Below, piece by piece: positions 9,311 through 10,359 of a DNA stretch of 37,607 nt (its first letter is position 1; each line of letters starts with the position of its first letter). Source of the DNA: a virus. The translations under genes and the position numbers were made by a program. Below the pieces are notes generated by a model. The model was not told the origin of the DNA, did not search any database, and saw only the letters and a program-made list of their open reading frames with translations. Location: IMG/VR virus record IMGVR_UViG_3300034066_000754, positions 1 through 37,607 of that record; one strand, written 5' to 3'.

Positions 9311-10359
9311 GCTACACCTCCGCACGCCGAACAACTCGCGCCCCTCGACGCCAGCCAGTCTAAACGCGCCTCGCCGTGCAATTCAGGCGGCGGGTCAGGG
9401 TAAACCATGCCAGCGCCTCCGCAAACGCCACAGGCAGGCTCCGCGGCCGCAACGACGGCCAATCCTTGCCCTGGGGGGCGGCGTGAATAGTCGCCGTCGT
9501 AAAACCAGCGCTCTAGATGCGGTATGAAGTGCTTCCGGTCCCGGAACCGCTTGGTCGCATGGTGTTCTGACCAGCGATCAAACGACACTTGGATTTTTCC
9601 TAGCCACTCGACAACGGGAGAGTTTGACTTCACGAACTCTCGCTCTGCAGCCGCTGCCGCCCTTGGCACGTTCCCCGGCTCCAGCCATGCCTCCGCGAAC
9701 TGCTCAACCTTCGCCCGTATCAGTTGGGTCGGGTCCGGCTCGCTCCAATCGAACTCAGGCTGCTGCCGTGCGGTTGCCCTCTTCGGTTCCGGTGGCTTCT
9801 CGGGAAACGGCGGAACGCTCGATCCGGTATCCGGCATCAGGTATCCGGTATCCGGTATCCGGTATCCGGTATCAGAGCGTGCTGACCCTGGATTTTGGGG
9901 TCTATCATAGGGGGTAAAACCCTGGGTTTTGGGGTCTATCATAGGGGGTAAAACCCGGTGCTCGCCCTGGGTCAACCCTGGGTTTTGGGGTCTATCATAT
10001 AAATCGGCCTCAGTACTACCTAAAATGGGGTAGTTTTGCGGCGGTGGGATAGTACTCGGCCCTTCTTTGTAGTGTGGTCGCTGGTGCTTGTGCCAAGCGA
10101 GGATTTGCACGTATTGGGCACCATCGGCGGCGTAGCGGAGGATGAAACCGGAAGACTGGAGGTCATCCATAGCCTGCTCTGCGTTGAACTCGTCGCATGG
10201 GAATAGGCGCATTTTGAGACGGCGCGGCCGGTCTTCGAGCCGCCCTTCGCGGTCGGCCTCGGTCCACAAGCCGATGAATAGTAGTCGCGTCAGCGGGGGC
10301 AGTTCGGCGAGGACTTCGTTGGTGAAAAAGCCGGGCTTGATGTTACGGGCGCGGGGCAT
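9307..10359 (-). CDS. Replication initiation protein with embedded repeats and C-terminal zinc finger
   Basis: The product is 350 residues. Residues 1-95 (ARNIKPGFFTNEVLAELPPL, then LWTEADREGRLEDRP) match the winged-helix N-domain common to phage replication initiators and replisome organisers. Residues about 120-190 are low-complexity repeats (DPKTQGF, YDRPQNPG, DTGYRIP). A helical region follows, then a C-terminal CGVCGGAG...CSACGG pair like a DnaJ zinc finger. The second ATG (10359) has GGAGG six bases upstream and is preferred to the one at 10365. As with lambda O, DNA repeats inside the gene probably form the origin. No helicase gene follows, so host DnaB is presumably recruited. Confidence 0.75.
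   Translation of the reverse strand: MPRARNIKPGFFTNEVLAELPPLTRLLFIGLWTEADREGRLEDRPRRLKMRLFPCDEFNAEQAMDDLQSSGFILRYAADGAQYVQILAWHKHQRPHYKEGPSTIPPPQNYPILGSTEADLYDRPQNPGLTQGEHRVLPPMIDPKTQGFTPYDRPQNPGSARSDTGYRIPDTGYLMPDTGSSVPPFPEKPPEPKRATARQQPEFDWSEPDPTQLIRAKVEQFAEAWLEPGNVPRAAAAAEREFVKSNSPVVEWLGKIQVSFDRWSEHHATKRFRDRKHFIPHLERWFYDGDYSRRPPGQGLAVVAAAEPACGVCGGAGMVYPDPPPELHGEARLDWLASRGASCSACGGVA
9826..9874. repeat. Tandem 7-bp repeat array (GGTATCC)
   Basis: Seven units in exact register: GGTATCC, GGCATCA, four perfect GGTATCC, and GGTATCA. Because 7 is not a multiple of 3, the array encodes a 7-residue protein repeat (DTGYRIP, DTGYLMP, DTGSSVP) over 21 bases. It adjoins the iterons and may be part of the origin or a slippage-prone tract. 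Confidence 0.85.
9886..9999. repeat. Iteron-like repeats: candidate replication origin
   Basis: Two directly adjacent 34-base copies (9886-9919 and 9920-9953) differ at one base, and a 24-base partial copy lies at 9976-9999. Each contains CTATCATAG (third copy CTATCATAT), and the junction of the first two makes the perfect palindrome AAAACCCTGGGTTTT (9916-9930). An AT-richer stretch follows from 9990 to 10020. Placement inside the initiator gene resembles lambdoid origins. Origin function is inferred. Confidence 0.65.

What the first reader, a model, noticed from the sequence alone, without database searches (positions are those of the whole stretch)
9886..9999. Iteron-like repeats inside the replication initiator gene
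Two adjoining 34-base copies plus a 24-base partial copy carry small palindromes and are followed by an AT-richer stretch. Together with the initiator-type N-domain this looks like a lambda-O-style origin, but with a different repeat type.
Basis: partly seen in the sequence, partly recalled or inferred. Interest (0 to 1): 0.6.

Follow-up and report, generated by a model that had tools for sequence, protein, structure and literature searches.

The report
Replication origin hidden inside initiator gene

Summary
The repeats are real: 9885-9918 and 9919-9952 (97% identical) plus a partial copy at 9975-9999, inside a 352-aa replication initiator gene (9307-10365, minus strand). They are conserved as DNA: relatives with 67% protein identity carry the same 34-bp block in the opposite orientation. 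The least stable 50-bp stretch of the gene lies next to it (9988-10038; only 19 of 37,557 windows of the phage are less stable).

Of 90 dereplicated initiators, 73 carry such TGATTCC-type arrays in the same place (12.8 expected from synonymous shuffles). Where the leading T would create a TGA stop, all 24 copies read GGA. The peptide IPDS uses Ile ATT and Asp GAT in 76 of 76 cases. In a group of related contigs, dyads plus a perfect (TGATTCC)5-9 array lie outside the gene as a non-coding module.

The variable dyads track the N-terminal domain, not the C-terminal part; one N-domain residue matches dyad class in 65 of 66.

Verdict: a lambda-O/SPP1/pSK41-style in-gene origin, in a new two-part variant. 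Origin activity is inferred, not shown.

The parts
9307..10365 (-). Replication initiator gene, 352 aa, carrying the whole element
   Evidence: ORF; PHROG replication initiation families
10039..10365 (-). N-terminal winged-helix domain (residues 1-109), the likely binder of the dyad repeats
   Evidence: AlphaFold2 model mean pLDDT 92.3; Foldseek best matches RepA initiator 4pt7/4pql/5kbj
10066..10071 (-). Codons of residues 99-100 (Tyr-Lys), the two N-domain positions most informative about dyad class in the family
   Evidence: Mutual information 0.82 and 0.74, next best 0.34; 100 = T/S matches class B in 65 of 66
9885..9918 (.). 34-bp repeat, copy 1
9919..9952 (.). 34-bp repeat, copy 2 (97% identical)
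9975..9999 (.). 34-bp repeat, partial copy 3 (first 25 bases)
9916..9930 (.). Perfect dyad AAAACCCTGGGTTTT at the junction of copies 1 and 2
9902..9910 (.). Dyad CTATCATAG in copy 1 (second one at 9936-9944)
9822..9874 (-). Array of 7-bp units (coding strand TGATACC/GGATACC), the window's member of the family-wide TGATTCC array
   Evidence: TRF 7.4 copies; motif scan 9826-9874, the only array in the window
9988..10038 (.). Least stable 50 bp of the gene; likely melting tract
10012..10056 (.). Inverted pair AGTACTA (10012-10018) / TAGTACT (10050-10056) around part of the AT-rich tract; kept in L003/L004/L006
   Evidence: read directly; significance not tested
9310..9786 (-). C-terminal part of the initiator, expected to recruit the helicase; fold not resolved
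   Evidence: model mean pLDDT 58

Best explanation
The region 9822-10056 is most likely the phage's replication origin, embedded in the linker-coding part of its own initiator gene. Inferred working: the winged-helix N-domain of the initiator binds the 34-bp dyad repeats; the wrapped complex melts the adjoining AT-rich tract (9988-10038); the 7-bp array, kept on one strand of the gene, is a second origin element where the opened strand is engaged or the helicase is placed; the C-terminal part then recruits the replicative helicase. Shown here: both repeat types are kept as DNA, not as protein; they travel together and can exist outside any gene; the dyad type follows the N-domain. Not shown: binding, melting, or start of replication. 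My confidence is about 0.85 that it is an origin, 0.75 that the N-domain binds the dyads, and 0.45 for the role given to the 7-bp array.
For: Within the window: repeats far above chance, inside an initiator gene, beside one of the least stable stretches of the phage. 9-mer repeats in the linker DNA: 103 pairs against a mean of 5.7 in synonymous shuffles, 0 of 200 as many. Relatives: the same 34-bp block inverted in L003, in three near-identical contigs L003/L004/L006. Family: 7-bp arrays on the coding strand in 73 of 90 initiators, 12.8 expected; 9.8 arrays per 10 kb in initiator genes against 0.13 elsewhere in the same loci. Coding is bent to fit: frame-0 copies start GGA in 24 of 24 (T would give a stop), the other frames have T in 257 of 284; IPDS peptides use ATT 76/76, CCT 73/76, GAT 76/76, while invariant residues of the N-domain use mixed codons. 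Non-coding modules: 35 contigs with dyads plus (TGATTCC)5-9 outside genes, 23 of them with an initiator gene 2.2-3.7 kb away on the fetched stretch. Dyad class is shared with the nearest neighbour by N-domain residues 45-end in 56 of 66, by the C-terminal part in 34 of 66, chance 31.8. In 6 of 9 named phages fetched, a DnaC-like loader or DnaB-like helicase gene follows within three genes.
Against: No experiment or read-depth data. GC skew shows no turn here. No helicase or loader was found among the 28 window ORFs scanned with PHROGs. The window's own 7-bp unit is GC-rich and is not the melting tract, although the array is on average the AT-richest part in the family, so the 7-bp array's role is unsettled. 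17 of 90 initiators have no coding-strand array by the motif used; of these L034 carries it inverted and L025 has a near-miss, L145 and L146 have the array outside the gene, and L030 is a neighbouring paralogue. 24 of 90 dyad regions fit no class and were dropped from the co-variation test. The phylogeny-corrected test has only 4 independent pairs on supported branches (about 3 agree, none oppose) and cannot reach 0.05.
Confidence: 0.8

Rival explanations
1. The 7-bp units are the true initiator-binding iterons, being the part conserved with the conserved N-domain, and the variable 34-bp/dyad repeats serve regulation or exclusion of relatives.
For: The 7-bp array is the most conserved DNA part (73 of 90), and the divergent N-domain clade L044/L047-L052 has a different short array, GATCAA.
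Against: The dyad class, not the 7-bp unit, varies with N-domain residues 99-100. 7/8/14/15-bp spacing would place duplex sites on different faces of the helix. Orientation is nearly fixed (73 against L034).
Confidence: 0.2
2. The 7-bp array is a partition site or operator for another protein, like the 7-bp parS arrays of pSM19035, and merely sits in this gene.
For: pSM19035 parS is made of 7-10 contiguous 7-bp repeats (5'-WATCACW-3') bound by a ribbon-helix-helix ParB (PMC9499535, passages seen). The reverse complement here, AATCAGG, shares ATCA.
Against: parS there needs four contiguous repeats and tolerates mixed orientation. Here arrays are often broken (14/15-bp gaps), can have 2-3 copies, keep one orientation, and stay with the initiator gene or its dyads.
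Confidence: 0.08
3. The repeats are selected as protein: a repetitive disordered linker.
For: Peptides such as LIPDSLIPDS recur, and the dyad-encoded peptides of window and L003 are more alike than shuffled ones (score 64, best of 1000 shuffles 37).
Against: Codon choice in IPDS is nearly fixed while elsewhere it is mixed. The same 7-mer is read in 2 or 3 frames in 65 of 73 genes. The block is inverted in L003 and the 7-bp array is inverted in L034. The module exists outside genes. The peptide likeness comes from dyads lying in register.
Confidence: 0.03
4. Functionless tandem duplication or a small mobile palindrome.
For: Copy number varies (5-9 in the non-coding modules); tandem repeats arise by slippage.
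Against: Same place and orientation in most of the family. The exact 34-bp core occurs in IMG/VR only in these initiator genes plus four single matches in unrelated contexts.
Confidence: 0.04

Closest known systems
Lambdoid phage O gene / ori-lambda
   Same: Origin in the middle of the initiator gene: iterons plus an AT-rich tract, bound by the protein the gene makes (PMC7466680, passages seen). Initiator followed by a loader/helicase gene in several named relatives.
   Different: No Pfam match of any kind for the window protein at E 0.1. Repeat unit and spacing differ, and a 7-bp array is added. No loader found in the window.
RepA_N plasmid initiators (pSK41, pTZ2162)
   Same: Winged-helix N-domain binding Rep boxes centrally within the rep gene, the ori-encoded stretch acting as a linker, and a C-domain recruiting host machinery (PMC5703833, passages seen). 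Best Foldseek matches of the N-domain model (4pt7, 4pql, 5kbj; E 0.005-0.03). N-domain plus origin exchanged as a unit in pPR9.
   Different: No RepA_N (PF06970) match. No 7-bp array is mentioned in the passages seen.
SPP1 gp38 / oriL
   Different: Phage_rep_org_N matches only 1 of 33 N-domains scanned, at E 0.012.
PLE RepA of Vibrio cholerae
   Same: RepA_N-fold initiator in a Gram-negative host with semi-palindromic direct repeats at a non-coding origin (PMC7145576, passages seen), comparable to the free modules found here.
   Different: Sequence relation not tested.

Membership tests
Lambda O-type initiator/origin | Repeated, partly palindromic DNA sites inside the initiator gene | tested here: met
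Lambda O-type initiator/origin | AT-rich tract next to the sites | tested here: met
   9988-10038
Lambda O-type initiator/origin | Protein sequence match to the O family in Pfam (family name recalled: Phage_rep_O) | tested here: not met
   no Pfam family at E 0.1
Lambda O-type initiator/origin | Helicase loader gene next door | tested here: not met
   none among 28 window ORFs scanned, though present in F10, U9 and Louie
Lambda O-type initiator/origin | Initiator binds the sites and opens the tract | not testable with these tools
   needs purified protein
RepA_N initiators | RepA_N domain (PF06970) by sequence | tested here: not met
   0 of 33 N-domains at E 0.1
RepA_N initiators | RepA_N winged-helix fold | tested here: inconclusive
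   top Foldseek hits but E >= 0.0048, TM about 0.55; VIA-align Z 7.5, tied with many winged helices
RepA_N initiators | Rep boxes centrally in the rep gene | tested here: met
   repeats in the linker-coding part; binding untested
Phage_rep_org_N (SPP1 gp38 group; grouping recalled) | PF09681 match | tested here: inconclusive
   1 of 33 at E 0.012
PHROG replication initiation protein 16167/12556 | Profile match over the N-domain and beyond | tested here: met
   1.9e-45 and 2.6e-41

The most novel reading that the evidence does not exclude
A large family of phages carries a previously undescribed origin part: a strand-oriented 7-bp array (TGATTCC type) that is forced through the initiator's coding frame by swapping T for G only where a stop codon would arise, and that can leave the gene as a free non-coding module. 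It may be a sequence-specific single-strand loading or opening element, comparable in role to the short repeats in bacterial origin unwinding regions.
Probability: 0.4. Interest if true: 0.75.

Novelty: new variant of a known kind. Interest (0 to 1): 0.6.

Why it matters
It turns an unannotated 'replication initiation protein' family into a set of located, testable origins with readable specificity: dyad class goes with two N-domain residues. It gives natural pairs (in-gene and out-of-gene versions of the same module) to separate coding from origin function, and a clean example of DNA function dictating protein sequence, down to stop-codon avoidance. Four sequence or phrase searches of the paper library for this array or for origins of this family found no description.

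Tried and rejected
GC skew: one-directional over the window, no information. Exact 34-bp core in IMG/VR: 8 stretches, of which L057-L060 are single matches in unrelated genes, taken as chance. Genome contigs gave 4 relatives; the 34-bp unit is not in the linkers of the three that I read (L064, L066, L067; the fourth, L065, dropped out at dereplication). Fold of the C-terminal part: low confidence (mean pLDDT 58), no fold search made. PDB sequence search with the N-domain profile: nothing at E below 0.07. NCBIfam: no match. The non-coding module of L145 has no blastn match among named phages, so no named phage could be tied to it. I first read array codon use on motif-defined positions, saw that this is circular, and replaced it by the peptide-defined test. 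Mosaic test on three sequences (window residues 46-166 closer to L003, 175-260 closer to L005) suggests exchange of N-domain end plus repeats as a block, but adjacency alone could do that.

Rows dropped: of 148 coding sequences, L051 and L136 were too short and the rest were reduced to 90 by shared 4-mers. L030 is a paralogue beside the true initiator but stayed among the 90 as 'no array'. Of the 38 contigs with four perfect units, L175 and L190 have no family context and L192 a different flank. Many of the remaining 35 modules are near-identical, so they are not 35 independent cases.

Full report
WHAT IS THERE. The gene at 9307-10365 (minus strand) encodes a 352-aa replication initiator. Its N-domain is a winged helix by model (mean pLDDT 92), followed by a linker and a C-terminal part. 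The linker DNA holds, from the N-domain side: an AT-rich tract (9988-10038) beside an AGTACTA/TAGTACT pair; a partial and two full 34-bp repeats (9975-9999, 9919-9952, 9885-9918) built of two dyads, CTATCATAG and AAAACCCTGGGTTTT; and a 7-bp array (9822-9874). The repeats are 34 bp and 7 bp long, so successive copies are read in different frames; linker repetition exceeds all 200 synonymous shuffles (103 pairs of repeated 9-mers against a mean of 5.7).

CONSERVED AS DNA. An identical copy is held in L002. L003, L004 and L006 (67% protein identity) carry the same unit on the other strand: the block aligns inverted with score 112, in the same orientation with 49, shuffles at most 36. The asymmetric ACCCC flanks are flipped while the dyads stay in place, so the block looks turned over between dyads. 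The encoded peptides remain partly alike because the dyads stay in register, so protein likeness alone would have misled. L005 (68%) has another dyad repeat there but keeps the 7-bp array. Outside these genes the exact core occurs in IMG/VR in four unrelated single matches only.

THE SEVEN-BASE ARRAY. I collected 148 coding sequences from three searches and from named phages and reduced them to 90. Without choosing a motif, the most often repeated 7-mers within linkers were CTGATTC (63 of 90, 7.7 expected) and TGATTCC (53 of 90, 7.8 expected). Arrays on the coding strand occur in 73 of 90, 12.8 expected from synonymous shuffles, at a median of 107 nt after the N-domain end; on the other strand L034 has a true inverted array (L102 only because its unit is near-palindromic). 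In the same loci arrays occur 76 times in 77,532 nt of initiator genes and 6 times in 446,843 nt elsewhere. Spacing is 7, 8, 14 or 15 bp, with one 13 and one 16.

CODING GIVES WAY TO DNA. In frame 0 the T of TGATTCC would make a TGA stop; all 24 copies in that frame read GGA, while in the other two frames 257 of 284 units have T. The frame-1/frame-2 alternation explains the 15-bp, five-residue LIPDS period. The peptide IPDS, chosen by protein only, occurs 76 times in 59 of 90 genes; Ile is ATT in 76, Asp GAT in 76, Pro CCT in 73; all four codons fit the array in 73 of 76, against 1.9% expected from codon use elsewhere. Invariant residues of the N-domain use mixed codons (for example Ile of RNIKPG: ATC 48, ATT 12, ATA 7), so common descent does not explain it.

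OUTSIDE THE GENE. Two initiators without an array (L145, L146) have a perfect (TGATTCC)7 about 2.4 kb away, in no ORF on that strand, next to dyads of kinds seen inside other initiator genes. Four perfect units, which cannot be read through on that strand because one frame-0 copy would be a stop, occur in 38 IMG/VR contigs; 35 share the layout dyads - GCCCGGC or GCCGGGC - (TGATTCC)5-9 - CTCA (in L179 the contig ends after CT), and 23 of the 35 have an initiator N-domain 2.2-3.7 kb away on the stretch fetched (12 have none on that stretch). Freed from coding, the array is uniform.

DYADS FOLLOW THE N-DOMAIN. By simple word counts I put 66 of 90 dyad regions in four classes (A GTGC/GCAC 43, B GTTA/TAAC 16, C CCTAGG-like 5, D the window's 2; 24 unclassed). 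The nearest neighbour by N-domain residues 45-end shares the class in 56 of 66, by residues 1-44 in 51, by the C-terminal part in 34, chance 31.8. For A against B the information lies in residues 99 and 100 (0.82 and 0.74 bits; the next position has 0.34 and the following residues 102-109 at most 0.32), so nearness to the repeats is not enough to explain it. Residue 100 is T or S in class B and not in the others in 65 of 66. Only 4 independent pairs stand on supported branches, 3 or so agreeing and none opposing, too few for significance.

FOLD AND NEIGHBOURS. Foldseek's best matches to the N-domain are the RepA plasmid initiators 4pt7, 4pql and 5kbj (E 0.005-0.03, TM about 0.5); VIA-align puts these and DnaD (2v79) at Z 6.7-7.5 among many other winged helices. 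This is a lead, not membership; no Pfam model matches the window protein. In 6 of 9 named phages fetched a helicase loader or helicase is annotated within three genes downstream (F10, Sew_P27, U9, IFTN1, Louie, JBD44); yong1 has an unspecific 'DNA replication protein' and two have no useful annotation. In the window no such gene turned up among 28 ORFs scanned.

KNOWN AND NEW. Origins inside initiator genes are established: lambdoid O (PMC7466680), SPP1 oriL in gene 38 (PMC6316719), pSK41 rep (PMC5703833); of each I saw passages. Mycobacteriophage authors suspected the same for their RepA (PMC7157519, passages) but found no repeats in the regions they examined. I found no account of the 7-bp array, its stop-codon accommodation, or its free modules in searches of an open-licence library, which lacks most subscription journals. 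Verdict: new variant of a known kind. The origin reading is strong but indirect.

Noticed in passing
L145:60-200, L146:120-210, L157-L194 (35 of 38): Free non-coding module of dyads plus (TGATTCC)5-9 outside the initiator gene; in L145 it lies beyond the end of a 260-aa minus-strand ORF at 234-1016 that looks repressor-like by eye.
   Followed up: partly
L044, L047-L050, L052 linkers: The divergent N-domain clade MRARLLKPGFF / MRTRLLKPGFF lacks TGATTCC but has GATCAA hexamer repeats at the same place (the dereplicated members listed there).
   Followed up: no
L069, L084, L092, L122, L132 linkers: A long HNH-like segment (cysteine pairs and histidines, read by eye in L069) sits between the N-domain and the 7-bp array (L069 protein).
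   Followed up: no
L030:3001-3549 and 3545-4345: A 183-aa ORF with the same N-domain and an HNH-like tail lies directly before the true initiator, which carries its own array.
   Followed up: partly
L034, about 100 nt after the N-domain end: The 7-bp array is inverted relative to the gene, the one clear case among 90.
   Followed up: partly
window 9885-9999, + strand: The repeats bring runs of three to five G at short spacing (GGG TTTT GGGG ... GGGGG), which might form a quadruplex when single-stranded; the G-rich strand is the other one in L003 relative to the gene.
   Followed up: no
window 7561-8538, 10519-11118, 11115-11534, 18339-20039: Neighbouring genes: Dam-like and N4/N6-type methyltransferases, RusA-like resolvase, RecT/RecE-like recombination pair; no helicase or loader found among 28 ORFs scanned.
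   Followed up: partly
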